A stretch of DNA of 60,607 nucleotides from an uncultured Lachnospiraceae bacterium (GTDB lineage: Bacteria > Bacillota > Clostridia > Lachnospirales > Lachnospiraceae): positions 1 to 60,607 of the forward strand of contig CANQBX010000017.1 of the NCBI GenBank assembly GCA_947589095.1, given 5' to 3'. Position 1 is the stretch's first letter, and every line of letters begins with the position of its first letter. The notes beneath the pieces were generated by a model, which worked only from the letters and a program-made list of their open reading frames with translations, had not been told where the DNA came from and ran no database searches. Of this stretch, positions 3,908 to 50,681 are shown in pieces. Position numbers and translations under genes: made by a program.

Positions 3908-3943
3908 AATACGAGCAGGGCGTCACTGGCGCCCTGTGTGTAT
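3908..3943 (-). repeat. Dispersed hairpin element copy 1 (reverse orientation)
   Basis: Stem AGGGCG/CGCCCT around the loop TCACTGG (CCAGTGA on the minus strand). Lies in the leader of the GntR operon. Confidence 0.8.
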
Positions 3944-3946
3944 GGA

Positions 3947-3983
3947 AATACAAGTGAGTGTCACTGGCGCCTTGCTTGCATGG
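3947..3983 (-). repeat. Dispersed hairpin element copy 2 (reverse orientation)
   Basis: Loop TCACTGG flanked by CAAG...CTTG outer arms; adjacent to copy 1 with a repeated spacer (TGGAAATACAA) after each copy. Confidence 0.75.
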
Positions 3984-4030
3984 AAATACAAAGACCGCCG
4001 CTGCTGGGCGGAGAAAGGAGAGAGCAGGAT

Positions 4031-4747
4031 ATGATCTTACTGGACTATCGGGACCGGAGACCGATCTATGAGCAGATCGTGGAGCGGTTTGTGGAGCTGA
4101 TGGTAACGGGAGTGATGCCGCAGGACAGCCAGATGCCGTCGGTGCGATCCATGGCTATGGAACTTTCGATCAATCCGAATACGATCCAGCGGGCCTACGC
4201 GGAGCTGGAGCGGCAGGGATATATTTATTCGGTCAAGGGCAAGGGCAGCTTTGTCGCGGAGAACCGGCATATCATGGAACGGCGCGGGGAAGAGATGCTT
4301 CAGGAGTTCAGGGCGCTTGCGGAGCAGGCCAGGAGCCTGGGGTTAGAGAAGGAGCGGCTGTTCGCGGTCATTAGCGCGGTATATGAGAAGATAACAGAAG
4401 AGGAGCCGGGTACCGGCGGAACACAGTCGCAGCTGCTGGGGCAGGCGCAGCCGAAAGCAGAAGCTGCAGAGCTGCAGAAGCAGCCGAAAGCAGAAGAGGC
4501 AGAATTGCAGGCGCAGCCGAAAGAAGAAGCTGCAGAGCTGCAGAAGCAGCCGAAAGCGAAAGAGGCAGAATTGCAGGCGCAGCCGAAAGAAGAAGCTGCA
4601 AAGCTGCAGAAACAGCCGAAAGCGAAAGAGGCGGAGCTGCCCGTCAGGCAGCAGGCAGAACGGAGACAGCCGGCGGCAGAAGAAAATGACGTAACGCAGT
4701 CCGCCGGTTACGGCAAGGCACTACGAGAGGAGGGAGAGACATCATGA
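4031..4747 (+). CDS. GntR family (YtrA-type) transcriptional regulator with repeat tail
   Basis: The frame is open from 3854, but that would include the promoter; ATG 4031 has an AAAGGAGAG site 8-10 bases before it. Residues 1-75 are a winged helix-turn-helix (RRPIYEQIVERFVELM ... NPNTIQRAYAELERQGYI ... GKGSFVA), typical of the short YtrA subfamily that represses its own ABC operon. Family members end near residue 125. Here the protein runs to 238 residues through a Gln/Lys/Ala/Glu-rich tail made of three 22-residue repeats (QPKxEAAELQKQ / PKAKEAELQA). The stop overlaps the ATPase start as ATGA, indicating translational coupling. It is expected to sense envelope or drug stress and repress the operon. 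Confidence 0.88.
   Translation: MILLDYRDRRPIYEQIVERFVELMVTGVMPQDSQMPSVRSMAMELSINPNTIQRAYAELERQGYIYSVKGKGSFVAENRHIMERRGEEMLQEFRALAEQARSLGLEKERLFAVISAVYEKITEEEPGTGGTQSQLLGQAQPKAEAAELQKQPKAEEAELQAQPKEEAAELQKQPKAKEAELQAQPKEEAAKLQKQPKAKEAELPVRQQAERRQPAAEENDVTQSAGYGKALREEGETS
4448..4645 (+). repeat. 66-bp tandem repeat (3 copies) inside the GntR gene
   Basis: Copies at 4448-4513, 4514-4579 and 4580-4645; each is itself made of two related 33-base halves. All keep the reading frame. Confidence 0.85.
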
Positions 4748-5643
4748 TAGAGGCCAGGAACCTGACGAAGCGGTTCGGCGATATCGTGGCTGTGGACCAT
4801 ATCGACGCCACGATCAGGGACGGCAGCGTCTTCGGCCTGATCGGCACCAACGGCGCGGGCAAGAGTACATTCTTACGTATGATGAGCGGGATACTGCGGC
4901 CGGACGAGGGCAGTGTAACCATAGATGGAAAAGAGGTTTACGAGGATATACAGGTTAAAAGCCGGTTCTTCTACATTTCTGACGACCAGTATTTCTTCAG
5001 CAATTCGACGCCGGAGGAGATGATGACCTTCTACCGGGCCGTGTATCCGAAGTTCAATAAGGAGAGGTTCATTCACCTGATGGAAAGCTTCGGCCTGGAC
5101 CGGCGGCGGAAGATCAATACCTTTTCCAAAGGCATGAAGAAGCAGGCGGCGGTGATCTGCGGGGTCTGCGCCGGGACGGACTATCTGTTCTGTGACGAGA
5201 CCTTCGATGGGCTGGACCCGGTGATGCGTCAGACCGTGAAGAGCATTTTCATGGGAGATATGCAGGAGCGGAACATGACGCCGATCATCGCGTCCCACAA
5301 CCTGCGGGAACTGGAGGACATCTGCGACCATGTGGGTCTGCTGCACAAGGGCGGTATCCTGCTGTCGAAGGATCTGGATGATATGAAGCTGAATCTCCAC
5401 AAGATTCAGTGCGTGCTGCAGCCGGGAAGAAAGGCGGAGGACATCCAGGGACTTGAGATTATTAATACCGAGGAGCGGGGCAGCCTTCTGACTTTGACCG
5501 TCCGGGGCAGCCGGGATCAGGTGGAGGCGGCCATGCACAGCTGCGAGCCTATTTTCGCGGAGATCATACCGCTCTCCCTGGAGGAGATATTTATCAGTGA
5601 AACGGAGGTGGCTGGATATGACATCAAGAAACTTGTGCTTTAA
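4744..5643 (+). CDS. ABC transporter ATP-binding protein
   Basis: A 299-residue nucleotide-binding subunit. It shows Walker A GTNGAGKST (about residues 37-45), the signature SKGMKKQ (residues ~135), Walker B with catalytic Glu replaced context FCDETFDGLDP (D-E present), and the switch histidine in ASHN. Proteins of this kind pair with the large membrane protein encoded next to form a Ytr/Bcr-like exporter or mechanosensing complex. The start overlaps the regulator stop by four bases, and the end overlaps the permease start by 26 bases, so the three genes form one operon. Substrate cannot be read from sequence. Confidence 0.93.
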   Translation: MIEARNLTKRFGDIVAVDHIDATIRDGSVFGLIGTNGAGKSTFLRMMSGILRPDEGSVTIDGKEVYEDIQVKSRFFYISDDQYFFSNSTPEEMMTFYRAVYPKFNKERFIHLMESFGLDRRRKINTFSKGMKKQAAVICGVCAGTDYLFCDETFDGLDPVMRQTVKSIFMGDMQERNMTPIIASHNLRELEDICDHVGLLHKGGILLSKDLDDMKLNLHKIQCVLQPGRKAEDIQGLEIINTEERGSLLTLTVRGSRDQVEAAMHSCEPIFAEIIPLSLEEIFISETEVAGYDIKKLVL

Positions 5644-8146: not shown

Positions 8147-8167
8147 GGCAGACGCATGATTATCTGT

Positions 8168-8214: not shown

Positions 8215-8224
8215 GAACTCTGCA

Positions 8225-8253: not shown

Positions 8254-8282
8254 ATAGAAAAAGACAAGGGGGTATATTCATC

Positions 8283-8850: not shown

Positions 8851-8892
8851 AAAGACCCTGACGGGCGGATCAAGCCCTGCCAGGGTCTTTGT
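8851..8892. terminator. Bidirectional terminator between convergent genes
   Basis: AAAGACCCTG (8851-8860) pairs perfectly with CAGGGTCTTT (8881-8890), with inner GGGC/GCCC pairs; A run on one side and T run on the other serve both strands. Confidence 0.85.
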
Positions 8893-8899
8893 CTGTTTC

Positions 8900-8936
8900 C
8901 ATGCAAGCAGAGCGCCAGTGACGCTCTTCTCGCATT
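8900..8936 (+). repeat. Dispersed hairpin element copy 3
   Basis: Stem AGAGCG/CGCTCT around CCAGTGA. Its right edge touches the stop codon of the DUF368 gene. Confidence 0.85.
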
Positions 8937-16443: not shown

Positions 16444-16474
16444 GCGCCCGCCATGCGTGCCGGGGTATTCTGCC

Positions 16475-16512
16475 GGGGTTTTGCGGGAGACTTTCCCGCG
16501 GAGCCCCTTTTT
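16475..16512 (+). terminator. Terminator of the feoAB fusion gene
   Basis: A 14-bp stem (16475-16488 with 16494-16507, three T-G pairs), loop GACTT, followed by TTTTT. Confidence 0.85.
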
Positions 16513-16518
16513 CATTAC

Positions 16519-16553
16519 ATGCCGGCAGGGCGCCGGTGATGCTCCGCTTGCGT
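16519..16553 (+). repeat. Dispersed hairpin element copy 4
   Basis: Loop CCGGTGA, stem GGGCG/TGCTC with T-G pairs; between the convergent feoAB and binding-protein genes, 10 bases from the latter's stop. Confidence 0.75.
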
Positions 16554-25606: not shown

Positions 25607-25642
25607 AGGACAGAAGCGCTTAGGAGACGTGGAAGACAGAAG

Positions 25643-25672
25643 GCCGGGACAGATCGAAAGTCCCGGCTTTTT
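25643..25672 (+). terminator. Terminator of the LOR/SDH gene
   Basis: GCCGGGAC (25643-25650) pairs perfectly with GTCCCGGC (25660-25667), followed by TTTTT. Confidence 0.85.
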
Positions 25673-25690
25673 GTGAGCTGCTGTATTTCC

Positions 25691-25727
25691 GTGCGTGCAA
25701 AGCGCCAGTGACGCTTTACACGCATTT
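25691..25727 (+). repeat. Dispersed hairpin element copy 5
   Basis: Stem AAAGCG/CGCTTT around CCAGTGA, with outer GTGC/GCAT arms. Directly before the LexA box of the SOS operon. Confidence 0.85.
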
Positions 25728-29104: not shown

Positions 29105-29213
29105 TTCGGAAATATGCATTCGGAAATATATCGATTATTATATGACATATTTCCGAATGTGGTTTGACATATTTCCGAATATGGTCTGCAATATTTCCGA
29201 ATGACGTTCCGAA
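29105..29213 (+). promoter_or_regulatory. Operator-like array of TTCGGAAATAT sites before the GH31 gene
   Basis: Three direct copies of ATATTTCCGAAT at 29147, 29169 and 29191 (exactly 22 bases apart, two helical turns), two inverted copies at 29105 and 29118, and a partial TTCCGAAT at 29206. The inverted and direct copies could also pair as a 13-bp hairpin. The stretch is AT-rich between GC-rich genes. Confidence 0.7.
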
Positions 29214-29277: not shown

Positions 29278-31851
29278 ATGATGGCTCAGGGACAATATAA
29301 ATTACCAATGCATCCGCAGGCATTGGCGGAGAACATGATAACCGGGGATACATATCGGATCACAGTGCTGACGGAAGGTTTGATCCGCCTGGAGTACAGC
29401 GAGGACGGAATCTTCGAGGACCGGGCGACGCAGACAGTTTTGAACCGCGACTTCCCGGCTGGGTCATACCGGGCAGAGGAAGAGAACGGCGAGCTTCGGA
29501 TCGTCACCCGGCGTCTGCGTCTTCGTTATGACCGGAAGGCATTTTCTGCCAGAGGATTACAGATCGAGATGAAGTGCGATTCGCTGGCCGGCGGAGGCGT
29601 CTGGCATTATGGAGATTCTGTGGACGACCTGGGCGGAACTGTCCGTACGCTCGACGGGGTGGACGGGGACTGTAAGCTGGGTCATGGACTGATGTCGATC
29701 TTGGGCTTTTCTGTGCTGGATGACTCCCGCTCTCTGATCCTGACGGACGATGGCTGGGTGGAACCGCGCAGGAAAGGAATCTGCGATCTCTATTTCTGGG
29801 GATACGGAGCGGACTATCTGGAATGCCTGAAGGATTTCTATCATCTGTGCGGAAAGACGCCGATGCTGCCGCGGTTCGCGCTGGGGAACTGGTGGAGCCG
29901 TTACTACGAGTATACGGAGGAGAGCTATCTGGAACTGATGGAGCGGTTCGACCGGGAGGGCATTCCATTTTCGGTGGCTGTCATCGATATGGACTGGCAC
30001 CTGGTGAAGATCGATCCGAAGTACGGAAGCGGCTGGACCGGCTATACCTGGAACCGGGAGTTCTTCCCGGATCCGGAGCGGTTTATGCGGAAACTGCATG
30101 AGCGGGGCATGCGGATCACGTTAAATGTGCATCCGGCGGAGGGCGTCGGAGCGCATGAGGAAATGTACGCCGCGATGGCAAAGGAGCTGGGCAGGGATAT
30201 TTCCAGAGAAGCGCCGATCGCCTTTGATATCACGGATCCGGCGTTTCTGGCTGCTTATTTTAAGTATCTGCACCACCCGCAGGAGGAAAAGGGCGTGGAT
30301 TTCTGGTGGCTCGACTGGCAGCAGGGCGGCGTTACGAAGATGGAAGGAATGGATCCGCTGTGGATGCTGAACCATTTCCACTTCCTGGACAGTGCGCGAG
30401 ACGGGAAGCGGCCGATGACATTTTCCCGCTACGCGGGGCCCGGCTCCCACCGCTATCCGGTTGGGTTCTCCGGGGACACTGTGATCACCTGGGAGTCGCT
30501 GCGGTTCCAGCCGTATTTTACCAGTACGGCGTCCAATATCGGTTACGGCTGGTGGAGCCACGACATCGGCGGTCACATGCGAGGGTATAAGAATGACGAG
30601 CTGGAGGCAAGATGGTACCAGTTCGGCGTGTTCTCCCCCATCAACCGTCTGCACAGCACGAAAAATGAGTTTAACGGCAAGGAGCCGTGGCGCTTCAGGG
30701 CGGAGGTCCGCGCGGTGATGGATGATTTCCTGCGGCTGCGCCACCGGCTTGTTCCCTATCTGTATACGATGAACCACCGCGCGTGGGCGGAGGATACGCC
30801 CCTGGTCCTGCCGGTCTATTACCGGTATCCGAAGGATTGGGCTGCCTATCGGCAGAAGAATGAGTATTTCTTCGGCTCGGAGCTGCTTGTGATGCCCATT
30901 ACGTCGCCGGCGGTGCCGGGGATCAACCGTGCCAGGGAGACAGTCTGGCTGCCGGAAGGGACATGGATCGACTTTTTCACCGGCGTGATCTATGAGGGCG
31001 GACGCACGATCCGGATGTACCGAGGGATCGAATCCATGCCGGTGCTGGCGAAGGCCGGGGCGATCGTGCCGATGCAGGGAGAGAAAGAGTACGCCGGAGC
31101 GCAGGATAGGATGCCTGCGGCGAGTTATGATGATACACAGGAGAATGTATTTATGGCGAGTGTCTGCGTTGGCGAACATGAGAAGGAACCTGCGCTGACC
31201 GCTTACGCAGCAGCGCCGAAAAAACTGTCAGTGCATGAGGATGCGCCAGTGGAAAGAACCTTACATATGGATCAGAACCCTGCAGCATTGATATGGCGCA
31301 TTTACGGCGGCGCGGATGGAAGATTCGTACTCTATGAAGACGACAATGTGAGCTGCGATTATCAGAAGGGAATCTGCGCGGAGACCGCTGTGGAGTTGTC
31401 CTGGAATGAGGATCCGGCCATTGTAATTCATCCCGCGAAGGGCGAACTGTCCCTGATCCCGGCAGAGAGGACGCATGTGATCGAGTTTTACGGATGCCGT
31501 GAGAATGAGGCAGTCTGCACGGCCGACGGGAAGCCGCTGGAAGTACATACTTCCTACGAAGAAGAAAGGCACTGCCTGCGGATCGTTTTGCCCGCGGCGC
31601 CGGTGACGGCTGAGCTAACAGTAAGATTTACGCGAAAGCCGGAACTGGCGGGGAATGATACAAAGAAACTGGCATATGATTTCCTGGATCGGGCGGAGAT
31701 GGATTTCGATCAGAAGACGGAGATCTATCGCACTGTCTGCAGCGGGAAATCGGTCCCCGTGATCCTCAGCCAGCTGCAGGTACTGGGACTTTCGGAGGAT
31801 ATGTTGGGGTGCCTGACGGAGATTCTGACGGCGTGGCCCGACAGACAGTAA
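29278..31851 (+). CDS. GH31 family glycoside hydrolase
   Basis: An 857-residue cytoplasmic enzyme, start supported by GGAGGGATAAG; ATG 29281 is an alternative. The N-terminal beta domain leads into a TIM barrel with LGNWWSRYYEYTEESYLELMERF, VIDMDWH, the probable nucleophile in WWLDWQQGG (~residue 345) and the probable acid/base Asp in GFSGDT (~399). The C-terminal part has LYEDDN, a DUF5110-like motif. GH31 includes alpha-glucosidases, alpha-xylosidases and other retaining alpha-glycosidases; the specificity is not clear. No transporter is adjacent. The repeat array before the gene suggests a dedicated regulator. Confidence 0.9.
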   Translation: MMAQGQYKLPMHPQALAENMITGDTYRITVLTEGLIRLEYSEDGIFEDRATQTVLNRDFPAGSYRAEEENGELRIVTRRLRLRYDRKAFSARGLQIEMKCDSLAGGGVWHYGDSVDDLGGTVRTLDGVDGDCKLGHGLMSILGFSVLDDSRSLILTDDGWVEPRRKGICDLYFWGYGADYLECLKDFYHLCGKTPMLPRFALGNWWSRYYEYTEESYLELMERFDREGIPFSVAVIDMDWHLVKIDPKYGSGWTGYTWNREFFPDPERFMRKLHERGMRITLNVHPAEGVGAHEEMYAAMAKELGRDISREAPIAFDITDPAFLAAYFKYLHHPQEEKGVDFWWLDWQQGGVTKMEGMDPLWMLNHFHFLDSARDGKRPMTFSRYAGPGSHRYPVGFSGDTVITWESLRFQPYFTSTASNIGYGWWSHDIGGHMRGYKNDELEARWYQFGVFSPINRLHSTKNEFNGKEPWRFRAEVRAVMDDFLRLRHRLVPYLYTMNHRAWAEDTPLVLPVYYRYPKDWAAYRQKNEYFFGSELLVMPITSPAVPGINRARETVWLPEGTWIDFFTGVIYEGGRTIRMYRGIESMPVLAKAGAIVPMQGEKEYAGAQDRMPAASYDDTQENVFMASVCVGEHEKEPALTAYAAAPKKLSVHEDAPVERTLHMDQNPAALIWRIYGGADGRFVLYEDDNVSCDYQKGICAETAVELSWNEDPAIVIHPAKGELSLIPAERTHVIEFYGCRENEAVCTADGKPLEVHTSYEEERHCLRIVLPAAPVTAELTVRFTRKPELAGNDTKKLAYDFLDRAEMDFDQKTEIYRTVCSGKSVPVILSQLQVLGLSEDMLGCLTEILTAWPDRQ

Positions 31852-33012: not shown

Positions 33013-33084
33013 GGCTTTGTGACGCTGCCTAATTGAAAACAGCCCCGGCCTGTCCTGCGCTGCGTTGCTGATCTCCCGTATTAC

Positions 33085-33121
33085 CATGCGAGAAGAGCGC
33101 CGGTGACGCTCTTCATGTATT
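33085..33121 (+). repeat. Dispersed hairpin element copy 6
   Basis: Stem GAAGAGCG/CGCTCTTC around CCGGTGA. The right edge supplies the last codons and the stop of the LRR gene. Confidence 0.85.
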
Positions 33122-33610
33122 CAGTACCTTCGTCTGGAACGCTTCCGGGCTGATCTGCACATTCGGCCCGAAATTCAGCTCCTTCAGTTGGTCGCAGCCG
33201 CCGAAGACCCAGGCGTAGATCTTCTTCATGCCTTTGCCGCAGACTACCCGTTTCAGCTGCTTGCAGTCCTTGAACGCGAAGGGCGGCAGGCTTGCCAGCT
33301 TGTCCGGCAGGATGATCTCCTCCAGGCCGCAGCGGGCGAAGGTGTATCCCCACAGGCTGGTAAGCCCGGCCGGGAGATCCAGATGATGAAGGTTTACGCA
33401 TCCGTCGAACAGGAATTCCCCCAGGTCTGTAACCGTCTCCGGAATGCGGACGGAGGTGATCTCTGCGTGTCCGGCAAAAAGCTGATCGAAGAGGACGGTT
33501 ACCGGGATCTCGTTGTAGGTGTCCGGGATCGTCACTTCGGCTTCGTCGCCCTGGTAGCCCGCGACGCAATAGGTTCCATTTTCCATCAGTTTATAGGTGA
33601 ATTCCTGCAT
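33113..33610 (-). CDS. Leucine-rich repeat protein (BspA-like LRR_5)
   Basis: A 165-residue protein without signal peptide or anchor, made almost wholly of BspA-type repeats of ~23 residues (SVRIPETVTDLGEFLFDGC, HHLDLPAGLTSLWGYTFARC, EEIILPDKLASLPPFAFKDC, KRVVCGKGMKKIYAWVFGGC). Larger relatives are surface proteins; this one is short and probably cytoplasmic. AAGAAGGAAA precedes the start. It converges with the ADP-ribosylglycohydrolase gene, and its stop codon lies inside a dispersed hairpin element. Confidence 0.8.
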   Translation of the reverse strand: MQEFTYKLMENGTYCVAGYQGDEAEVTIPDTYNEIPVTVLFDQLFAGHAEITSVRIPETVTDLGEFLFDGCVNLHHLDLPAGLTSLWGYTFARCGLEEIILPDKLASLPPFAFKDCKQLKRVVCGKGMKKIYAWVFGGCDQLKELNFGPNVQISPEAFQTKVLNT

Positions 33611-37724: not shown

Positions 37725-37748
37725 TGCGGCACTTGATATGACAGCAAT

Positions 37749-37786
37749 GGCCCGCCCGGAAACGAGAGCTTCCGGGCGGGCCGTTT
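37749..37786 (+). terminator. Terminator of helD
   Basis: A perfect 13-bp GC-rich stem (37749-37761 with 37770-37782), 8-base loop, then GTTTG; short T run. Confidence 0.75.
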
Positions 37787-37794
37787 GGCTGCTT

Positions 37795-37832
37795 CATGTG
37801 AGTAGAGCGCCGTTGACGCCTTGCTTGTATTA
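37795..37832 (+). repeat. Dispersed hairpin element copy 7
   Basis: AGAGCG, loop CCGTTGA, CGCCTT, then the family tail TTGTATTA. First of two tandem copies between the convergent helD and ybjQ genes. Confidence 0.75.
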
Positions 37833-37837
37833 CGTCA

Positions 37838-37874
37838 GTATGCAAAAACGCATCCGTGACGCTCTTCCCGTATT
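37838..37874 (+). repeat. Dispersed hairpin element copy 8
   Basis: ATGCAAAAACG ... CCGTGA ... CGCTCTTCCCGTATTT; a diverged copy ending 3 bases before the ybjQ stop codon. Confidence 0.65.
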
Positions 37875-37877
37875 TCC

Positions 37878-39116: not shown

Positions 39117-39305
39117 GTATAAATATAATTTCATATATGCAATTTTGTCCGGCAGGCGGGTTCTGGGAGATGCCCGGCCGGACTGGTTTCATTTTCTTCC
39201 GTGCGGCATGGGGAGTTTCTGCGTTTTGAGTGATAGCTGCAAACAGGCCGCGCTTAAATGGAAAGTAAAATACTCCATCAATTTCTATTCCAGGAGGAAA
39301 TCAAT

Positions 39306-42300
39306 ATGAGAACGAAATGGGCGCGAGATGGCCGCAGAATGACGAGGCGGTTCAACTCGGGGGGGCGCCGTGTACTGGCAGGACTGCTGGCAGTGGCGAT
39401 GGTGTTTGGTCTGATGAACATCAATCTGCCGGAGGCGAAGGCGGAAGAGAAAGTGGATTATGAGGCGGAGAAGAAGGCCCGTCAGGAAGAGTATGAGAAG
39501 AAGTTTGATCTGGAGACGCTGACCTGGCGGGATAATTCTGCCCGTCCGTATCTCTACTGGCGGAATGATGTGTTCGGCGGAATAGAAGGTAAGAACTATA
39601 TTCATGTCTATGCGTTCGAGGGAGAAACAATCTGTTTTGGTTCCAATATCTATAATTCCAAACTGAATATGGCAGGCGACCGCGAAGCAACTGAAGAAGA
39701 GAAGAAGGAGATCAAAAAGCGCCTGGGGTATGATGAAGCGGACGATACAGTGGACACAGATATCTCTGTGGATATCGTGCTGACGGATCTGCGGGGCAAC
39801 CGTATTCTTTATGATGTGAAACAGAATGGGCTTGGTCATATCCCTAATGTTCAGACAGAAGTTCTGGCTAAAACTTTGGAAAGTCCGAATGGACAGTCTC
39901 AGGGGACGTATAATTATACCCCACTGACATATAAGGTTACGGAGACAGGAGTGTATACCTTTGAGTTTCATTCTTATGACCTTAGTGGTACTGATGGGCA
40001 GTCGTATAAGAATATCTCTAATTTTTATTCTCAATCGGCTACAAGAAATGAGAATGCTCAAGGTGCCCTGGTAGCTGCCTGGGATGTAAGTGTGTTTAAT
40101 GAGCAGGGCTACAAAAAAACCGGCCGTGTCTATGCGGACTATCTTGCTCTTCAGGAAAATGGTGGCGAAGTCCGTGAGACTTACTATGTAGTTACCACGG
40201 ACAGTTATATCTATCGTTGGGACTGGAAGGGCATAAAACCCAATACGTACAGCTTTTTTGCGGATAACCGGGGATTAACAGATAACGCAACCGGCAGTAC
40301 CCTGTACAAATCTGTGAAAGAGGAGAACAACGGTACTTCAAATTTTAAGAAATTCGGCGCCAGTTATAAGTATCCAGGCAGCGTCAATACAGATCAGGCT
40401 AAAAGTTTCTATATCTTTTTCGAGATGCCTAACGCTGATCTGAACGGGCATCTTTACTCCAGGGCAATCCAGCCCGATCCGGCGGAGAATATTCGGTTTG
40501 TGGATACTATCACAGATGATGAAGGTAAGGAAGTTCCAGGATCTTATGTGGGTATGGGCGGGTACTTTGCCTTTGACACGAGAGAAGCAACTACTGCTAC
40601 GCTGGTACTGAAATTCGATGAAGTGACAATTGGAGGGTCTAAGGGCGACTATGCTCCCGTCACTATCTCCGGGCCGGTAAAGCCATATTCTACCAACTAT
40701 TTTTACTGGGATGGCAGAGATGGAAAAGGTACGGTTATTCCCGAAGGGGATTATAAGATCGAGGATTTGATCACTTTGACTACTAAGGCCGGGGAGATTC
40801 ATTTCCCGGTTCATGATGTGGAAACTTCCGTAAAAGGATTTACATTTACTCGTGTGAGTCCCATATATAATCGTGCAGGAGAACAGATCAGCGACCTTGG
40901 AGATGGAAATGAGAATATTCTGGACGCTACCAAGAGCGTTATCTATTACGATGATTCGGCTATCTACTACGGAGAACATGTGGGCCGTACCGGGTTGACA
41001 GAAAGTGCGGTTGACAGATTTGAGAATAATACGGATAATTTGATGACTAATGATGATATAGGCAATCCGTATTATAAGTATGTCAATATGAACACTGATG
41101 GCGGAGAATATAAAGCACGTCAGACAGACTATATTAAAAATAACATTAGTGCGGCAAAGGCAGGGACAGCAAATTATATCCGTATTGGGGATCATAGTCA
41201 TACAACCAACCTGATCGAATACTATGATAAAGACGGAGCATTTCTGAAAGATTATGAGAGCCAAAAGGATAAAATTGACTATCTGGACAGCGAAAAAAAT
41301 CCGGTAGGAATATCGTCAGTGTCAGAGAAAAATACATACGATTTCGGAATCTCTGATTTCTGGACGTTTATTCCTGCCGAACCCGCCGTTATCGAGGATT
41401 CTGCGCAGACGATCCGTATCATCGATGGTGACGCGTTCAATCTGACGGGACAGGTATTTTATGATAAAGACTCTAATGGTAAGTATGACTCAATGGCTGA
41501 CAGCGACAGCCTTCTTACCGGCGTTACTCTGAATCTGTATACGAAGACAGCGGATGATGAACCGATTACCGGCAGTACCTATTATACGGTAGACAGCGTA
41601 TCCGGAAAAGTCAATTCTGGCGATAGTATTGGTATGCAGCGGAATGTTGTGAGAAAATTTACTGGAACAGTATTTGATCCGGAAAAAACATATTATGAAC
41701 TCTTTAAGTCGGACGTGACGCCGGTGGAGGGGCGGTATTTCTTTACCAATATCCCCTACGATAAAGCAAATGGAACGGAAGTAGTCTATGAAGTCTGCCG
41801 GCCGGATGCCAGTTATGTACTTACCTCGGGGAATACACTGCCGGAGCCGATAAAAACAACAGGCGACACATATTACGGTTCATACGCTCTGTATGCTTAT
41901 GACACGGCGGGCCGCGGCACTGAGGTGCAGATTATCCGGGTGGGTGAAGGTGAAGGTATGGTTAACCCGGATAGTAACAGGACAGATGGTGAGACTAATC
42001 ACACGGTTACAGCGGTAGATGTAGGTTATCATTACGATGCCTATACCAAACTGAAACTGAAAAAGACATATGCAGTGAACGGGAGTGTTTCGCTTCCTCA
42101 GACTACAGTGTTCGAAGTCTGTTATGTGGACAGCACAGGCACATCCCACGTTTATGATGAGCTTCCTCTGGCCAGGATCGAAAATGAGGAGTATACTTAT
42201 GAGCTGCTTCCATCTACGATGAACGGTGCAGAGGTTACGGACTGGTATACGGCAGCCGAGTATTACATTGCAGCGGTGGATACCAAGAATTATCTGTTCC

Positions 42301-45300
42301 GGCATACGTTTGATTATGATCCGTCTTCCGGGACGTATATCAGCTTTGTGGGTGAGAGCCAGTACATTGAGTTGAGTGATTTAAATGGGGATAATATTCT
42401 TGATCAGAAAGATATTCCTGACGCTAACGCTGATGAAACGCATGATTGGAAGGATCTGAGTGTTCTTGGCACGGATGCAGATATGACAGAAACAACATGG
42501 GAGAAAACAGGAACCGGGATAAGTGCGCCTTTCCATGCGGTTCTCGATCGTAATCCCGGTACTGCCGAGATCACCATCAATATCACCAATGCCTCTGATC
42601 CCGGTGTGATTGAGATTTTGAAATATACTGGTGCGCTAGAGGACAGGAATTATCTCCAGGGAGCGACGTTCCGTATCTATACGAGTCTTGCCGGTGAAAG
42701 TGAAATTACTATTGACGCAGTGCAGCAGCGTATCAACGGCAATACAGCCGATGATCTGCAATGGTTGTCGGACCGCCAGGTAGGCAGTTCTTCTACCCGT
42801 GCCAACGGAAAGGTGGCGTTTGCCGGACTGGATCCGAATAAGCATTATGTCATCCGTGAGATGTTTGCTCCGGCAGGCTATCGTATTATGGAGACCCTTT
42901 ATCTGGTTCATCCGAAAAATACGCCTAACAATGAGTATTATCGGGAGAAGCCAGAGGGAATGACAGATGAGGATTGGGAAGACTGGAAGATGCGGAATTT
43001 TCTCTTTGGGGAGGACAACTATGTGCAGGCCACCATTGCCAATATTCCTGCCAACGGGGATATGGCTATACGTAAGCAGATCGATGGCCGTGCATGGAAT
43101 GAGGGAGATCAGTTTACTTTTGATATCGCGTTTCGTCAGAGCAACACGGATGGGACATTGATTACGGATATTACTGAGGGTGTTTTTGATAGTAGTTCGG
43201 GATTCTTTGTGATGGATGACACGGAGAAATCCTTGTTTGGAGATAATGGCAGCAGACAGAAAATTCTTGCTGATTTAAAGGAGTTTGTTAGCGGATTTAA
43301 TAATAATACAAACGACATCACTGTCAATTATCATAGCCAGTTTGCTACATCCGTTACCTCAGTTAATGGTGCTGCAGATATTGAGACTCCTATGGCGGAT
43401 ACAAAGCAGTCGGTAGGTCTGATAACCAGCTATACGGTGAAAGAAGAAAAACCGGACGATCCGGACGAAGACCAGGAGGAGCATCCGAACGATGCATCGT
43501 TAAATCGTTCAACACAGGGGACTATAGGCGGAGCTCAGGCCGTGGAACCGCATGTATTCCCGGCAGCGGGAATTTATACGTTTACTGTCAGTGAGAATGA
43601 TCTGGGCGGAGAGTTGTCCGGAACGCTGAGTAAATCAAACAGAGTGTTTGTGGTTGAAATTGAAGTGACCCGTGTTTTGGATCCCGGCGAAGACGAGGGA
43701 ATTCCTATCACTGCGGAAAATTCATATCTGAAAGCGGAAGTGCGCAATATTTATTCCCGTGATCCTAAAGAGGGTGCTGCGTCTCCGGCGTATCCGACAG
43801 ATTATAATTCTATGCGGCGTTATGCCGGGGTGGCTCCTACATTTGTTAATACTTATACCATACAGCCGGCAATTCAGACTACCAGCTACGCTATTACAAA
43901 GATATTCACTGGGCGGTTGGGGCAGAATGGACAGCCTGTTAATGATGAAGACGATGTAAAAAGAAATTGGCTTGCAAATGATAAGTTTACTGTTACCATA
44001 ACTGGAGCCAACGATCAGACTGTCGAAGCGCTCAAATCAAGTCAGCTCTACATCGGCGGTTTGCACGGTGGAATGGAAGGTGGGACATTTGCCGAAAAGA
44101 AGGAGATTGATTTTAATCAGAATAATGTGACCAATCGTAACAGTATGGCGGAGGGAGGCCAAAACCATGAGGTGGATAAGGGTCACACGTTCAATTTCGA
44201 GGAGATAGATTTCCACGATATTAAATTCCCTGTGGTATGGAAGTTTAATGCTGAGTGTACTGTGGATGGTGTCAATTATAAAGCTGGAGACATTGTGCCG
44301 GATGTTTCAAAGGTCGTATTCATTCCCACGGCTGAAGGAAGCGATGGACAGTATATATACGCTGAGGATCCGGAGAATGTGACGGGAAGTGAGCCTGAGG
44401 TCAGTTCCCATACCGGGGACCTGGTTTACACTCTCAGAATTGAAGAAACCAGACCGCAAGGGGCGTCGCCGGAAAATGAGTATACATTTGAAGGTATAAA
44501 ATATGACCCTAAGGTGTATACAATGGTTATCACTTTGCGGAATGCAGTGGCGGCTGATACGGAACATCCTTCTGCAGGAGTCCATGACGGCATTATAGAT
44601 GAAATGGACTTCGAGTTGTACGAATGCGCGCCGGATCATATCCATGCTGAAGGGGTTGAGCCGATTGCTACCTGTGAGACGGATCAGGAAGTTGTAACAA
44701 CTTTTGATGACTGGGTAAATGCTGTTTTCGAAAATGAAAGCTATGAATCAGATGAAGGAGCGTTTGAAGGAGCGGACGATTCCTGGAAGAACGGTTGGTA
44801 TTATGTTAATGCTGAGCAGATAATCAGGCAGGCTACGGTGGAGGAGTGGCAGGACGATAACGAGGATTATCAGAAAGGAAAGCCGGAAGTACTTAGCGTG
44901 ATGGCTACGAATTCTGGGCAAGCGGGAGCAGGTGAGCAGAAGATTTATATTGTGAGGGATGCTACCGCCCAAAACGCTTATAAAGTTGAGCATCCAGATG
45001 CTGGTCTTGTCTATACGTTTGACGAATTAGAGGAATACAATCTCACTTTTGTGGTCAAACGTGAGGGGCATCATGGTGTGTCCAATCACACGATGACCTT
45101 TGCCAATACTTATTCTGCCAGCGGCACTTGGACGCCAACAGTCGCAAAGACTTTGGCTGGCCGTGATTGGGAGACAGGTGAGGAATTTGAATTTACTCTA
45201 TCCTGCACCAAGTGGCCGGGAAGCGGAAATGATTATAATCCCGTACCTGACCGGAGACGGCTTAGGATAAGCAGGCCCATCTCTGGAACAGAAAATAGCG

Positions 45301-48300
45301 CTGTTTTTGATACTGTCACATTTACCGCTCCTGGAGAATATGAATTCAGGATTTCTGAAATTGGCAAAGGGCAGGGAATAGGCAGTGGTACGAGTACTGG
45401 CGATATCAATATCGAAGTAACTGTTTCGGATGATGGAAATGGCAGTCTGAATCTCACAGTTACCGGCAGTGGCGGTACAACGCCGGAAGAGCCGTCTAAT
45501 CATGTTGCCACAACCATTCATTTTGTTAATACTTATGACGAAAACGGCGAGTTTGAACTGAATCTGTCCAAGCAGCTTACCGGTCGGGACTGGAGAACAG
45601 ATGACGAGTTTGTTTTCAGCGTTAAGCCAGACAATGGACGAACGGAAGAGGATATTGCCAACGGGACGCTTATAGTTCCCGATAGTTGGATTATCAGTGG
45701 AAGTGATTATACAGTTAAGGTTGATAATAACAGTCCGGGAACAAAGAATGATGCTGCTGGTTGGGAAACGAAGACATTAAATCTTGGAAAGCTTCATGTG
45801 GGCAATCTGAAGACTCTGGGTGCAGAATATAAATTTACTATTGCGGAGAATACCAGAAGTTTTGATGATCAAAGTATCTATTGCGCCCAACCGTCAATGG
45901 AACTGACCCTTGCGGTCAGCAGTACGCCTCATACGGAAGGTGGTCTCACCGGCGGTCTGGAGTTCGTGGCGACCTATGCCTATCTGTCTGATCCGGACAC
46001 GAAGTACGGTGACCTGACACACCCGGTAGGGAGCATCACCCTTCCCTTCACCAACCGCTACTACGCATCCGCGTCCCCGTCCGGGAATAACAGCCGCCTC
46101 ACGATCGGCAAGGTGCTTACCGGCCGGGAGTGGCTGGAGGATGAGAGTTATGACGTGAAGCTGACGCTGAATGACGCGGACGGTAACGGCAAGGCGGAGA
46201 ATGTCCAGTATATTGCATATACCGGCGCCGCAACGCCAGGCAACGCGTATAGGGAATTCTCCGAGGCCGAGGACAGAACGCTTTCACTTACTTTCGACGG
46301 TACGGGCGCGGAGGATCCCGATAACTGGAATGTGGATTTCCGCTTCTACGAGGCAGGGGATTATGTGTTTACCGTCAGAGAAGCAAGCCCTGCCAACGGA
46401 AGCAGGAAAGCCAACGTTATCTGCGACGATACGGAGTATACGGTCACATTCAGCGTGACAAAGGATGAGTCAAATGATAACAGGCTGCAGGTGTCGCGGT
46501 CTGTCATGCCCGAGTCCAGTACAGCGTGGACGGCGGGCAGCAGTGCTGATATCGTGTTCGTCAACCGATATAAACCGGAGCCTGCTGTCTGGACGCCTTC
46601 GGTTACCAAAGAACTGAAGGGAAGAGGCTGGGTGGCTAATGACAGCTTTACATTCACTCTGGAGCGGACGAACGGCGATACAGACGGGGTGACGCTGGCT
46701 AAGAGCAGTGTTTCTATTACGAACGCGTCGGAGGCCGGAAGCGGCGTCAGTTTCGGAGATGTTATCTTCACTAAGGCGGGAACGTATCGATTTACGATTA
46801 CTGAGACAGATCCCGGTAATGGGATTACGCAGGAGACGCCGAACTTAGGCTCCATTGCTGTCGAGGTCGAGGTGACGGATCATCCGGCCGAAGGCAAGCT
46901 GAAGCTTAAGGTTACCGGTACAGGTGGAACAGCCGCTGAAGAAAATGACGCTGCGGCTACTACTATTCAATTTGTCAATACCTACAGTGAGAGCGGCACA
47001 TTCCCTATCAATCTGTCCAAGCTTCTTACCGGAAGAGACTGGAATGATGACGACACATTTACATTTGCGATCGAACCCGATGAGGTGACAAAGAGCGCTG
47101 TCGGGGGAACCGAAGGCAGACCGCTTACGGTTCCGGCAGGCTGGGGGGAACCCGACCCGGAAGGGAATTACACCGTTAATGTGACGAAGGATACTTCGGA
47201 GAAAACGGATGACGGCAATCCGGAGTGGGTGACCAGGGAGGCTGCGACCGGTTACCTGAACGTGGGTAATCTGCGCGCGCGGGGTGCCTCCTATGGGTTC
47301 TCCATTCGGGAGGATACGGATGGGTTCGAGGCGCAGCAGCTTTACTGCCGCCAGCCGCAGATCGATCTGAGCGTTACGGTCAGGAGCGAACAGACGGCGG
47401 ACGGCAGGCCGACCGGCGATCTGGAGTTCGTGGCGACCTATGCCTATCTGTCCGATCCGGACACGAAGTATGGTGACCCGACAAACCCGGTAGAGAGCAT
47501 CACGCTTCCCTTCACCAACCGCTATTTTGCCGGCAGCAGTCTTACGGTCGGTAAAGTTCTGGAGGGGCGGAACTGGCTGGCCGGCGAGAGTTATACGATA
47601 GAAATGGAACTGGCGGAGCGCAGCACCGGCAAAGCGGTGAACGTGCAGTACGCCGTCGCTACAGCGGGCAACGCGGACCGCTATAAAGAGCTTTCTGAGA
47701 CAGAGGGCGATACGGTTTCTCTTTCCTTTAAGAGCGAGGAAGGCGGCAGCGCTGGTCCCGCCGGGCGGCGCGTGGATTTCCGGTTCTTCGAGGCGGGAGA
47801 CTATGTGTTCACCGTTCGGGAGAAGAGCCCCGCGGACGGGGAGGAGAGACCCGGCGTCGCCTATGATGAGAGGCAGTACACGGTGACGTTCCGTGCGGAG
47901 AAAGGAACGGATGGAGCGCTGGCGGTGACGCGGTCCATTTCGCCGGATCCGGCGGCGGAAAAGCCGGAAGGAAGCCTGGCAGATGCAGATATCGTATTTG
48001 TCAATACATACACTCCCGCTCCGGCGTTCTGGACGCCTTCGGTGGTTAAGACGCTGAACGGCAGGGAATGGGCGAGCGGCGACAGCTTCGTGTTCAGCCT
48101 GAAGCTGACGGATGGAGACGAAGACGGCGTGAAGCTCGCAGACACGGCCGTGACCATCGGAGAGGCGGACGAGGGACATAAGGCCGGTTTTGGAGAGGCC
48201 GAATTTACGAAGGCCGGGACGTATACGTTTACGATTGGCGAGAAGGCGCCGGAGCATGGGATCGACGTCGATGATGCGGGAGCCTACTCCGTCAGGGTGA

Positions 48301-49052
48301 CCGCGGCGGATGATGCGGCCAGCGGACGGCTGAAGCTTTCGTTTGATCCGGAGAGTCTTACGCCTGCCGGAACCATTTCCGATGGCAGCTGGCATTATGA
48401 TACTGTCACAAGATTTGTGAATACATACAGTCAGGAGCCGGGAAAATTCACGCTGAATCTCAGGAAGATCCTGGAGGGCCGGGAATGGCTGGCAGACGAT
48501 GAATTCGTTTTCTCCGTTACCTTCACGGCTACGCCGAATGAAGCTGCGAAGACGGCGCGGAACTGGGAGTTCAGACGGCGCCTGATGTCTGAGCGGGTAT
48601 TGGAGGACGGCAGGGAGAACGCCGCGGAGGCATCTGCGGCAACGCCGAATGAGATCGAAAGCAGGGAGCAGAGTCGGGAATTCCGAAGCATCCTGCTGTC
48701 GGAGATCACAGTCGATCCGGCGGCAACGCCGAATAATACCCCAAGGGTGCTGCAGAGACAGATAGAGGAATCGCTGCCCGCGATCGTTGTGCCGGAAGAT
48801 ATCTGGGGACCGGCCCATGAAGCCACCGGCGCGTACACGTTCACGGTGAAGGGCGGCGGCGCTGCCGGCGACAGAAGCGTTGTCCTGCCGCTGGGCGAGA
48901 TCACGGTAAATGAACCGGGACAGTATGTATTTACCATCCGTGAGGTGCAGAGGTACGCCGACCAGGTTTATTGCCAGGAACCCAGGATCGTATTAACGGT
49001 CACGCAACGGTCATTATGGAGGATGGCGTGCCGAACGGAGAACTGCAGGTAG
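39306..49052 (+). CDS. Giant isopeptide-domain surface adhesin, N-terminal part (frameshifted)
   Basis: ATG 39306 follows AGGAGG; the 3,248-residue product starts with an Arg-rich signal peptide (hydrophobic LAGLLAVAMVFGLM, cut near AKAEE). Then come a large N-terminal region (~residues 40-700), a SdrD B-like segment (VFYDKDSNGKYDS), a SpaA-like domain (~42600-42900) and about ten FctA/Spy0128-type pilin domains, recognised by K-x-L-x-GR-x-W starts (for example VAKTLAGRDW) and F-V-N-T-Y ends; Lys, Asn and Glu of such domains form isopeptide bonds. The frame is lost near base 49003 and ends in a short wrong-frame tail (RMACRTENCR). The anchor is encoded in the next frame. Without repair the protein would be secreted, not wall-bound. 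Confidence 0.9.
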   Translation: MRTKWARDGRRMTRRFNSGGRRVLAGLLAVAMVFGLMNINLPEAKAEEKVDYEAEKKARQEEYEKKFDLETLTWRDNSARPYLYWRNDVFGGIEGKNYIHVYAFEGETICFGSNIYNSKLNMAGDREATEEEKKEIKKRLGYDEADDTVDTDISVDIVLTDLRGNRILYDVKQNGLGHIPNVQTEVLAKTLESPNGQSQGTYNYTPLTYKVTETGVYTFEFHSYDLSGTDGQSYKNISNFYSQSATRNENAQGALVAAWDVSVFNEQGYKKTGRVYADYLALQENGGEVRETYYVVTTDSYIYRWDWKGIKPNTYSFFADNRGLTDNATGSTLYKSVKEENNGTSNFKKFGASYKYPGSVNTDQAKSFYIFFEMPNADLNGHLYSRAIQPDPAENIRFVDTITDDEGKEVPGSYVGMGGYFAFDTREATTATLVLKFDEVTIGGSKGDYAPVTISGPVKPYSTNYFYWDGRDGKGTVIPEGDYKIEDLITLTTKAGEIHFPVHDVETSVKGFTFTRVSPIYNRAGEQISDLGDGNENILDATKSVIYYDDSAIYYGEHVGRTGLTESAVDRFENNTDNLMTNDDIGNPYYKYVNMNTDGGEYKARQTDYIKNNISAAKAGTANYIRIGDHSHTTNLIEYYDKDGAFLKDYESQKDKIDYLDSEKNPVGISSVSEKNTYDFGISDFWTFIPAEPAVIEDSAQTIRIIDGDAFNLTGQVFYDKDSNGKYDSMADSDSLLTGVTLNLYTKTADDEPITGSTYYTVDSVSGKVNSGDSIGMQRNVVRKFTGTVFDPEKTYYELFKSDVTPVEGRYFFTNIPYDKANGTEVVYEVCRPDASYVLTSGNTLPEPIKTTGDTYYGSYALYAYDTAGRGTEVQIIRVGEGEGMVNPDSNRTDGETNHTVTAVDVGYHYDAYTKLKLKKTYAVNGSVSLPQTTVFEVCYVDSTGTSHVYDELPLARIENEEYTYELLPSTMNGAEVTDWYTAAEYYIAAVDTKNYLFRHTFDYDPSSGTYISFVGESQYIELSDLNGDNILDQKDIPDANADETHDWKDLSVLGTDADMTETTWEKTGTGISAPFHAVLDRNPGTAEITINITNASDPGVIEILKYTGALEDRNYLQGATFRIYTSLAGESEITIDAVQQRINGNTADDLQWLSDRQVGSSSTRANGKVAFAGLDPNKHYVIREMFAPAGYRIMETLYLVHPKNTPNNEYYREKPEGMTDEDWEDWKMRNFLFGEDNYVQATIANIPANGDMAIRKQIDGRAWNEGDQFTFDIAFRQSNTDGTLITDITEGVFDSSSGFFVMDDTEKSLFGDNGSRQKILADLKEFVSGFNNNTNDITVNYHSQFATSVTSVNGAADIETPMADTKQSVGLITSYTVKEEKPDDPDEDQEEHPNDASLNRSTQGTIGGAQAVEPHVFPAAGIYTFTVSENDLGGELSGTLSKSNRVFVVEIEVTRVLDPGEDEGIPITAENSYLKAEVRNIYSRDPKEGAASPAYPTDYNSMRRYAGVAPTFVNTYTIQPAIQTTSYAITKIFTGRLGQNGQPVNDEDDVKRNWLANDKFTVTITGANDQTVEALKSSQLYIGGLHGGMEGGTFAEKKEIDFNQNNVTNRNSMAEGGQNHEVDKGHTFNFEEIDFHDIKFPVVWKFNAECTVDGVNYKAGDIVPDVSKVVFIPTAEGSDGQYIYAEDPENVTGSEPEVSSHTGDLVYTLRIEETRPQGASPENEYTFEGIKYDPKVYTMVITLRNAVAADTEHPSAGVHDGIIDEMDFELYECAPDHIHAEGVEPIATCETDQEVVTTFDDWVNAVFENESYESDEGAFEGADDSWKNGWYYVNAEQIIRQATVEEWQDDNEDYQKGKPEVLSVMATNSGQAGAGEQKIYIVRDATAQNAYKVEHPDAGLVYTFDELEEYNLTFVVKREGHHGVSNHTMTFANTYSASGTWTPTVAKTLAGRDWETGEEFEFTLSCTKWPGSGNDYNPVPDRRRLRISRPISGTENSAVFDTVTFTAPGEYEFRISEIGKGQGIGSGTSTGDINIEVTVSDDGNGSLNLTVTGSGGTTPEEPSNHVATTIHFVNTYDENGEFELNLSKQLTGRDWRTDDEFVFSVKPDNGRTEEDIANGTLIVPDSWIISGSDYTVKVDNNSPGTKNDAAGWETKTLNLGKLHVGNLKTLGAEYKFTIAENTRSFDDQSIYCAQPSMELTLAVSSTPHTEGGLTGGLEFVATYAYLSDPDTKYGDLTHPVGSITLPFTNRYYASASPSGNNSRLTIGKVLTGREWLEDESYDVKLTLNDADGNGKAENVQYIAYTGAATPGNAYREFSEAEDRTLSLTFDGTGAEDPDNWNVDFRFYEAGDYVFTVREASPANGSRKANVICDDTEYTVTFSVTKDESNDNRLQVSRSVMPESSTAWTAGSSADIVFVNRYKPEPAVWTPSVTKELKGRGWVANDSFTFTLERTNGDTDGVTLAKSSVSITNASEAGSGVSFGDVIFTKAGTYRFTITETDPGNGITQETPNLGSIAVEVEVTDHPAEGKLKLKVTGTGGTAAEENDAAATTIQFVNTYSESGTFPINLSKLLTGRDWNDDDTFTFAIEPDEVTKSAVGGTEGRPLTVPAGWGEPDPEGNYTVNVTKDTSEKTDDGNPEWVTREAATGYLNVGNLRARGASYGFSIREDTDGFEAQQLYCRQPQIDLSVTVRSEQTADGRPTGDLEFVATYAYLSDPDTKYGDPTNPVESITLPFTNRYFAGSSLTVGKVLEGRNWLAGESYTIEMELAERSTGKAVNVQYAVATAGNADRYKELSETEGDTVSLSFKSEEGGSAGPAGRRVDFRFFEAGDYVFTVREKSPADGEERPGVAYDERQYTVTFRAEKGTDGALAVTRSISPDPAAEKPEGSLADADIVFVNTYTPAPAFWTPSVVKTLNGREWASGDSFVFSLKLTDGDEDGVKLADTAVTIGEADEGHKAGFGEAEFTKAGTYTFTIGEKAPEHGIDVDDAGAYSVRVTAADDAASGRLKLSFDPESLTPAGTISDGSWHYDTVTRFVNTYSQEPGKFTLNLRKILEGREWLADDEFVFSVTFTATPNEAAKTARNWEFRRRLMSERVLEDGRENAAEASAATPNEIESREQSREFRSILLSEITVDPAATPNNTPRVLQRQIEESLPAIVVPEDIWGPAHEATGAYTFTVKGGGAAGDRSVVLPLGEITVNEPGQYVFTIREVQRYADQVYCQEPRIVLTVTQRSLWRMACRTENCR
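45957..46062 (+). repeat. Adhesin 106-bp repeat, copy A
   Basis: About 93 % identical to 47421-47526 (7 differences seen); encodes LEFVATYAYLSDPDTKYGD and following residues at the end of the second domain of each super-repeat. Confidence 0.85.
47421..47526 (+). repeat. Adhesin 106-bp repeat, copy B
   Basis: Offset 1,464 bases from copy A, the period of the three-domain super-repeat. Confidence 0.85.
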
Positions 49053-50521: not shown

Positions 50522-50526
50522 TATGT

Positions 50527-50561
50527 GCGGTCGGGCTTCTTGCCCGGCCGCCGCGTTTTTT
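50527..50561 (+). terminator. Terminator of the adhesin gene
   Basis: 10-bp stem GCGGTCGGGC/GCCCGGCCGC (one T-G pair), loop TTCTT, then CGCG and six T's. Confidence 0.75.
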
Positions 50562-50600
50562 CATGCGGGCAGGATGTCAGTGACGCTCTGCTTGTATTTT
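50562..50600 (+). repeat. Dispersed hairpin element copy 9
   Basis: GCAG...CTGC outer arms, loop TCAGTGA; first of three tandem copies. Confidence 0.8.
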
Positions 50601-50637
50601 CATGGTGCAAGGTGCCAGTGATGCCTTGTTTGTATTA
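50601..50637 (+). repeat. Dispersed hairpin element copy 10
   Basis: CAAGG/CCTTG arms around TGCCAGTGATG; followed by the spacer TGTATTACGTCAGTATGCA also found between copies 7 and 8. Confidence 0.85.
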
Positions 50638-50642
50638 CGTCA

Positions 50643-50681
50643 GTATGCAGAAAGCGTACCAGTGACGCGTTTCCTGTATTT
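50643..50681 (+). repeat. Dispersed hairpin element copy 11
   Basis: GAAAGCG ... CCAGTGA ... CGCGTTTC arms, tail CTGTATTT. Confidence 0.8.

What the first reader, a model, noticed from the sequence alone, without database searches (positions are those of the whole stretch)
3908..50681. Dispersed ~37-bp hairpin family with invariant CCAGTGA loop and covarying stem
Eleven clear copies: 3908, 3947 (reverse), 8900, 16519, 25691, 33085, 37795, 37838, 50562, 50601, 50643. The core is a six- to eight-base stem around CCAGTGA, with an ATGC-type left edge and a TGTATT-type right edge. The stem changes on both sides together: AGAGCG/CGCTCT, AAAGCG/CGCTTT, GAAGAGCG/CGCTCTTC, AGGGCG/CGCCCT, CAAGG/CCTTG, while the loop stays CCAGTGA or one base off. 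Such compensation points to selection for the folded form (RNA or single-stranded DNA) or to REP-like mobility. Density is about one per 5.5 kb. I do not recognise it as a named element.
Basis: seen in the sequence. Interest (0 to 1): 0.8.

Follow-up and report, generated by a model that had tools for sequence, protein, structure and literature searches.

The report
Mobile hairpin repeats landing behind terminators
A rabbit-gut bacterium carries some two hundred copies of a tiny DNA hairpin that seems to have jumped to the spot just behind other hairpins, mostly the stop signals of genes, and behind its own copies too, giving short arrays; the enzyme that moves it was not found.

Summary
In detail: all 11 copies are real, at 7 sites. 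They belong to a family with 208 units at 120 sites in the 429 kb of this genome that I read. The unit is a 35-bp hairpin (14-bp stem, loop near CC[A/G]GTGA, foot ATGC/GTAT with a conserved G.T) repeated head to tail every 39 or 44 bp. Stem covariation is strong. I found it only in one genus of uncultured rabbit-gut Lachnospiraceae, patchily.

New: (1) arrays lie directly 3' of another stem-loop, usually an intrinsic terminator, in fixed polarity, confirmed on 180 other sites, and also where the upstream gene runs the other way. (2) Related species show empty sites; three lack exactly 39 or 44 bp. (3) Units unlike their neighbours were gained behind a unit's GTATT. (4) Group II introns also land behind these hairpins.

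Best reading: a REP-like mobile hairpin whose target is a DNA stem-loop with a T-rich tail, its own included. No RAYT link: six of ten rich genomes have no Y1 transposase hit. Mobiliser unknown; little sign of recent activity in this genome.

The parts
3907..3949 (-). hairpin unit, second of a two-unit array
3946..3987 (-). hairpin unit, first of the two-unit array (shares the GTATTTCC junction with its neighbour)
3995..4011 (-). weak stem-loop on the 5' side of the array (-8.5 kcal/mol for 45 nt)
8852..8891 (+). terminator-like stem-loop directly 5' of the unit (-24.4)
8896..8936 (+). hairpin unit
16473..16505 (+). terminator-like stem-loop 5' of the unit (-27.2)
   Evidence: coordinates approximate
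16515..16551 (+). hairpin unit, partly decayed
25640..25670 (+). terminator-like stem-loop 5' of the unit (-18.6)
25685..25727 (+). hairpin unit; G014 has a unit with the other linker at the matching place
33080..33121 (+). hairpin unit overlapping the stop codon of the minus-strand frame 33113-33610; also present in G002, not at this place in seven other species
37746..37785 (+). terminator-like stem-loop 5' of the array (-34.0)
37794..37832 (+). hairpin unit 1 of 2
37833..37875 (+). hairpin unit 2 of 2 (44-bp type linker ACGTCAG), arms poorly matched; G014 and G004 have one unit here
50523..50556 (+). terminator-like stem-loop 5' of the array (-24.5)
50558..50599 (+). hairpin unit 1 of 3
50600..50637 (+). 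hairpin unit 2 of 3
50638..50681 (+). hairpin unit 3 of 3 (44-bp type linker ACGTCAG)

Best explanation
A family of miniature, non-autonomous mobile hairpins (REP-like), 39 or 44 bp per unit. Shown by comparison: each unit is a 35-bp stem-loop (foot ATGC/GTAT, loop CC[A/G]GTGA closed by GCG/CGC) plus a linker; the arms vary but stay complementary; units occupy places that are empty in related species; about 70% of arrays sit directly 3' of another strong stem-loop with a T-rich tail, in one polarity. Inferred: the insertion machinery takes a folded DNA stem-loop with a T-rich 3' flank as target, whichever way the neighbouring genes are read, a target choice like that of group IIC introns. A landed unit (stem-loop plus GTATT) is then itself a target, so later units land behind it in the same polarity and head-to-tail arrays grow. 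Only well-paired hairpins spread, so mobility, not a task at each site, is the likely filter that keeps arms complementary; resident copies then decay. Landing behind terminators spares genes. The moving enzyme is unknown: an undetected HUH-type enzyme, a host replication or repair route, or a mobiliser since lost.
For: Upstream 50 nt of 118 arrays: mean -18.0 kcal/mol, 69% at or below -15, against -9.3 and 15% downstream, -9.8 and 16% on the reverse complement of the downstream flank, -11.3 and 22% at random places. The signal is confined to the first 6-12 nt, survives removal of 20 flanks that may hold decayed family members (74% of 100) and is repeated on 180 sites, all but one from other genomes (70% upstream, 13% downstream, 22% in dinucleotide shuffles). 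It also holds where the upstream gene runs the other way (14 of 24 and 6 of 10). Empty sites: three exact (39, 44, 39 bp) among 31 orthologous pairs without a unit on the other side, of 138 pairs. Units unlike the neighbour gained behind a GTATT in L294 and L307. Array polarity constant: 0 of 120 sites mixed, 2 of 199 elsewhere. Covariation. Same core at up to 13 distinct flanks.
Against: No mobiliser found. In this genome only 1 of 173 distinct cores occurs at two sites, so there is little sign of recent movement here. About 30% of arrays have no strong upstream hairpin, among them 2 of the 7 window sites and 3 of 3 G009 sites; by a strict ungapped stem score only 38% pass, against 3-5% in controls. 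Most of the 31 empty pairs are rearranged, and no constant target duplication was seen. 15 of 120 sites overlap a predicted gene by more than 10 nt (crude caller). 11% of adjacent units are near-identical, so tandem duplication also builds arrays.
Confidence: 0.6

Rival explanations
1. Host function: the hairpins are working parts of gene 3' ends (back-up terminators, insulators, mRNA stabilisers) kept by selection for RNA folding, not mobile parasites.
For: They lie behind terminators and 3' of genes in 55 of 89 classified arrays; the third pair is a conserved G.T on the strand read with the upstream terminator; some stems (AAAAAACGCG...CGCGTTTTTT) look like terminators themselves.
Against: Empty orthologous sites; ten of 25 genomes of the genus have no match; 34 of 89 arrays have an upstream gene that runs the other way; mismatches of the G.T and A.C kinds are reduced almost alike; many copies are decayed.
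Confidence: 0.12
2. A classical REP/RAYT or IS200 system: a Y1 HUH transposase cuts and joins the single-stranded hairpins.
For: Size, folding, copy number and intergenic position are REP-like; an IS200 lies about 100 bp from one array.
Against: No Y1_Tnp hit in six of ten rich genomes (G002, G004, G009, G012, G018, G023) and eleven hits in G015, which has no match to the hairpin; no GTAG tag; the IS200 in L001 scores 158 bits for IS200 and 33.8 for RAYT against a cut-off of 80. The genomes are drafts (80-98% complete), so a lost or missed gene is possible.
Confidence: 0.1
3. The group II intron machinery of these bacteria moves or makes the hairpins (same target, reverse transcriptase available).
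For: Introns of the genus begin behind terminators and, in G000, behind these hairpins in 4 of 9 copies clearly and one more behind a variant; class C introns are reported to insert just after Rho-independent terminators (PMC8919778, passages).
Against: No RVT_1 hit in the rich genomes G008 and G004; G014 and G004 have no hit to the intron's start and none to RF00029; G003 and G015 have 10 and 15 RF00029 matches and no hairpin match.
Confidence: 0.08
4. No transposition: arrays change only by slippage, template switching and recombination between copies, and were seeded once.
For: Fewer or chimeric units at 37795 in G014 and G004; an inverted copy across the terminator in G014 opposite the 50.5-kb site; 11% of neighbours at least 90% alike in the arms.
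Against: Single units of 39 or 44 bp at sites with no unit in the relative; gained units unlike the neighbour; adjacent units hardly more alike than random ones on average (0.65 against 0.60). Loss rather than gain is not excluded at each single site, since no outgroup was used.
Confidence: 0.1

Closest known systems
CGTC-tagged REPs (Di Nocera et al. 2013, PMC3733652)
   Same: Small dispersed palindromes, often 3' of genes, no dedicated transposase; A-T pairs at the first two stem positions; 21 of 208 units here have CGTC or TGTC near the left boundary
   Different: There: stems of 8-9 bp, loops of 4-5, the tag at the stem foot, mostly head-to-head dimers, head-to-tail negligible. Here: 14-bp stem, 7-nt loop, tag only in a minority and 3 nt from the stem, head-to-tail arrays
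GTAG REPs / REPINs with RAYT
   Same: REP-like size, copy number and hairpin form
   Different: No GTAG tag, no RAYT found, no inverted pairs as the rule
Group IIC introns (as target choice)
   Same: Land just 3' of terminator stem-loops in fixed polarity; here they also land behind the hairpins
   Different: The hairpin has no ribozyme, no reverse transcriptase and is 39-44 bp long
attC sites of integrons (recalled, not tested)
   Same: Folded hairpins with variable but complementary arms
   Different: No gene cassettes between units; integrase and R boxes were not searched for
TIGR arrays (seen only as a search listing; features recalled)
   Same: Short tandem units with conserved loop and edge and two variable parts
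   Different: The two variable parts pair with each other, arrays have at most 6 units in this genome and are dispersed; Tas genes were not searched for

Membership tests
REP-like palindromic repeats (general) | 20-40 bp palindromes, many copies, mostly intergenic | tested here: met
   35-bp hairpin; 208 units at 120 sites; 15 of 120 overlap a predicted gene by more than 10 nt
GTAG REP / RAYT | GTAG tag at the foot of the hairpin | tested here: not met
   foot consensus ATGC...GTATT
GTAG REP / RAYT | RAYT gene in the genome, flanked by the repeats | tested here: not met
   two Y1 hits in this genome, both IS200-like; none in six of ten rich genomes; drafts, so not absolute
CGTC-tagged REP | CGTC tag at one end next to the stem | tested here: not met
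   CGTC or TGTC near the left boundary in 21 of 208 units only, 3 nt from the stem
CGTC-tagged REP | stem 8-9 bp, loop 4-5, head-to-head dimers | tested here: not met
   14-bp stem, 7-nt loop, head-to-tail arrays; definition
CGTC-tagged REP | no dedicated transposase | tested here: inconclusive
   none found, but only Y1_Tnp, RVT_1 and group II intron families were searched
Group II intron | ribozyme domains or RT in the element | tested here: not met
   no Rfam match in the window at gathering scores; unit of 39-44 bp
Mobile element | precise empty sites in relatives | tested here: met
   three exact, five nearly clean
Mobile element | transposition observed | not testable with these tools
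   uncultured organism, draft genomes

The most novel reading that the evidence does not exclude
A mobile element reduced to a single 39-nt hairpin whose target is any DNA stem-loop with a T-rich 3' flank: host terminators seed arrays and every inserted unit becomes the next target. It is moved by something that is neither a RAYT nor a group II reverse transcriptase, and its arms stay complementary because only perfect hairpins are propagated, perhaps by copying one arm from the other.
Probability: 0.35. Interest if true: 0.82.

Novelty: new variant of a known kind. Interest (0 to 1): 0.6.

Why it matters
REP-like palindromes are widespread, but how they choose sites and grow into arrays is poorly understood, and families without a RAYT have no known mover. 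Here a site rule can be read from sequence, and it is a DNA structure, the same one that group IIC introns use. That turns 'how do orphan palindromes spread' into a testable question and suggests that terminators are a shared landing zone for unrelated mobile elements. The hairpins in turn supply landing sites for a group II intron.

Tried and rejected
RAYT/TnpA link: not supported. Known RNA family: no Rfam match in the window at gathering scores; one match at E 0.28, far below its gathering score, in a 261-base stretch. Phage or plasmid origin: no blastn match of the array at 50540-50700 in the plasmid or phage collections; the one viral-contig pattern hit and the one Nitrospiraceae hit were not scored by the family profile and are taken as chance. 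Group II intron as mover: same target, no correlation. DNA-uptake sequence: suggested by a paper seen only in a listing (PMC1852404), set aside because the core is too rare (30 exact copies). TIGR or CRISPR arrays: set aside because the variable arms pair with each other. Pure slippage: does not explain the empty sites, kept as a secondary process. Strand test: G.T 458 and A.C 318 against 686 and 543 in shuffles, too weak to name the folded strand. Genes lying between close units were listed but not identified. In print: eight searches showed no description of this repeat; the 13-mer core occurs in no held paper. The library holds open-licence papers only. Of papers I saw: PMC3733652 abstract, passages, sections 6 and 15; PMC8919778 and PMC6006769 passages; PMC8266576 abstract and outline; the rest only as listings.

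Full report
CHECK OF THE OBSERVATION. They fall into seven sites because several are neighbours in arrays. A covariance model from the eleven finds 137 matches at E<=1 in the window's own genome, G000 (4.1 Mb, 192 contigs, 97.6% complete), with only 150 of 2,156 candidates scored. The exact core GCGCCAGTGACGC occurs 30 times there and its backward reading 0 times. I fetched stretches around the hits; with the window and search loci they cover 428,962 bases. An iterated sequence profile (E<=0.01) found 208 units at 120 sites, 199 of them at E<0.001; 66 sites hold one unit, 35 two, 19 three to six.

ANATOMY. The consensus is ATTTCC-ATGCAAGCAGGGCG-CCAGTGA-CGCCCTGCTTGTAT-TT. Fourteen pairs can form; the third is G.T in 79% of 392 distinct ungapped units (447 of the 506 units found in all held sequence were ungapped, at E<=0.001, and on held flanks). 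The loop is CC[A/G]GTGA, 72-96% conserved by position. Of 88 unit-to-unit distances 56 are 39, 12 are 38 and ten are 44-45. The longer units have TACGTCAG instead of TTCC before ATGC. The right boundary is sharp (GTATT, then no consensus); the left one merges into a T-rich stretch.

COVARIATION. On 132 model matches, 93 cells change on both sides against 42.8 in shuffles (0 of 500 as high) and sliding the partners destroys the signal (this alignment is fitted to the structure, and three of the rows are the other strand of a palindrome already counted). On the 392 units aligned by sequence profile, the mean mutual information of true pairs is 0.130 bits against 0.017-0.035 for slid pairs; the true partner ranks first of 16 columns for 10 of 14 pairs. 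Of the 14 cores with the most distinct right flanks, ten have every pair Watson-Crick except the fixed G.T and four have 11-12 Watson-Crick pairs. Resident units carry G.T and A.C mismatches at 0.67 and 0.59 of the shuffled numbers. I read this as hairpins paired when copied and then decaying. Copying of one arm from the other could give the same pattern and is not excluded. In G000 itself only 1 of 173 distinct cores is found at two sites, so there is little sign of recent activity in this genome.

WHERE THE UNITS SIT. The 50 nt upstream of 118 arrays with full flanks (of 120) have a mean folding energy of -18.0 kcal/mol, against -9.3 downstream, -9.8 on the reverse complement of the downstream flank and -11.3 at 1,000 random places; 69% against 15%, 16% and 22% reach -15; the last six bases are 47% T against 22-25%. 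A stricter score (ungapped stem, short loop, one mismatch) passes 38% against 3-5%. In 36-nt windows the signal is at offsets 0 and 6 (-11.7, -12.3), falls to -7.4 at 12 and to -5.6 to -7.0 beyond; downstream it is -5.1 to -6.2 throughout. Dropping 20 flanks that may hold a decayed family member leaves 74% of 100. On 180 sites with distinct flanks, all but one from other genomes, 70% upstream, 13% downstream and 22% of shuffles reach -15; 0 of 3 G009 sites do. By a crude gene caller, 55 of 89 classified arrays lie behind a same-strand gene, at a median of 96 nt from its stop codon. In the other 34 the upstream gene runs the other way, yet 14 of 24 and 6 of 10 still have the strong hairpin. The rule therefore seems to concern DNA structure, not direction of transcription. 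I did not run the matched control of gene ends without a unit. In the window six of seven arrays lie behind a plus-strand gene and five of seven have an upstream hairpin of -18.6 or lower; the exceptions are 3907 and 33080.

MOBILITY. Flanks of 323 sites in all held sequence gave 138 orthologous pairs, 31 with no unit on the other side. Three are exact: L353 against L373 differs by 39 bp, L373 against G000 contig 12 by 44, and G014 against G000 at the 50.5-kb site by 39. Five more are nearly clean (L300 or window 3907-3987 against L327; G000 contig 108 against L294; L354 against L319; G000 contig 46 against L274; L371 against G000 contig 65). The remaining pairs are less clean or rearranged. 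The empty alleles of these eight fold at -5.5 to -25.4, four of them below -11 (no control). No outgroup was used, so gain is the natural reading, not proof. At window 33080 the unit is present in G000 and G002 and not at that place in seven other species, two of which have a different unit nearby. Units unlike their neighbour appear behind a GTATT: one extra in L294 against G000 contig 108, one in L307 against G000 contig 12. Adjacent units are slightly more alike in their arms than random ones (0.65 against 0.60, 61 pairs), and 11% are near-identical, so tandem duplication also occurs. At 37795 the single units of G014 and G004 look like deletions between the two units of G000. Orientation is constant inside arrays: 0 mixed of 120, 2 of 199 elsewhere.

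DISTRIBUTION. Within the genus 10 of 25 genomes have 71-140 matches, five have 1-9 and ten none (at most 149 candidates scored each). None of 16 genomes of other families of the order and none of 118 genomes of other genera of the family had a match. That scan cannot show absence elsewhere. A viral scan gave one hit without profile support; phage and plasmid collections gave none for one array.

WHO MOVES IT. Y1_Tnp has no hit in six rich genomes (G002, G004, G009, G012, G018, G023), while G015 with eleven hits has no hairpin match. RF00029 and RVT_1 do not track the load either. A group II intron of the genus, recognised by Rfam D1-D4 models and, in a copy of G011, by TIGR04416, begins behind terminators and in G000 also behind these hairpins: 4 of 9 copies clearly, one more behind a variant. 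Class C introns are reported to insert just after Rho-independent terminators (PMC8919778, passages); that this intron is class C is my inference. I hold that both elements share a target type and that the hairpin serves the intron as a landing site, not that the intron moves the hairpin.

COMPARISON AND VERDICT. It works like a REP, but it is not a member of the GTAG/RAYT class (no tag, no RAYT found) nor of the described CGTC families (stem, loop, tag position and dimer geometry differ; PMC3733652). It shares site choice with group IIC introns but none of their parts. I file it as a new variant of a known kind. The target rule and the insertions rest on comparison; the mechanism of movement is inferred.

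Noticed in passing
L196, L207, L212, L214-L219 (G000 contigs 9, 28, 47, 76, 85, 88, 92, 118, 5): Nine copies of a group II intron start in G000; at least 4 follow a hairpin of this family, most lie close to a contig end, so the intron probably breaks the assembly.
   Followed up: partly
L192, L195, L200, L205, L208 (G005, G023, G008, G010, G041): The first 23 bases of the intron (GTGCGCC.GGCGGCGCACGTTT.) occur behind terminators without the rest of the intron; a solo fragment or a small element of its own.
   Followed up: no
L098 4590-4792 (G014), opposite window 50.5 kb: Hairpin units in inverted orientation on both sides of a terminator, the whole forming a long palindrome that runs through the terminator; looks like an inverted duplication across it.
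   Followed up: no
L001 (G000 contig 5): An IS200 element with its own end hairpins lies about 100 bp behind an array unit.
   Followed up: partly
window 39258-49052: A frame of 3,264 aa with repeated modules about 1.45 kb apart (e.g. 45934 and 47398, 90% alike); probably a large surface protein, not identified.
   Followed up: no
window 4441-4632: 66-bp tandem repeat (2.9 copies, 96% matches) inside a predicted gene.
   Followed up: no
window 29132-29208: Three copies of a 22-bp direct repeat (TGACATATTTCCGAATGTGGTC) just upstream of the gene at 29278/29308; perhaps an operator.
   Followed up: no
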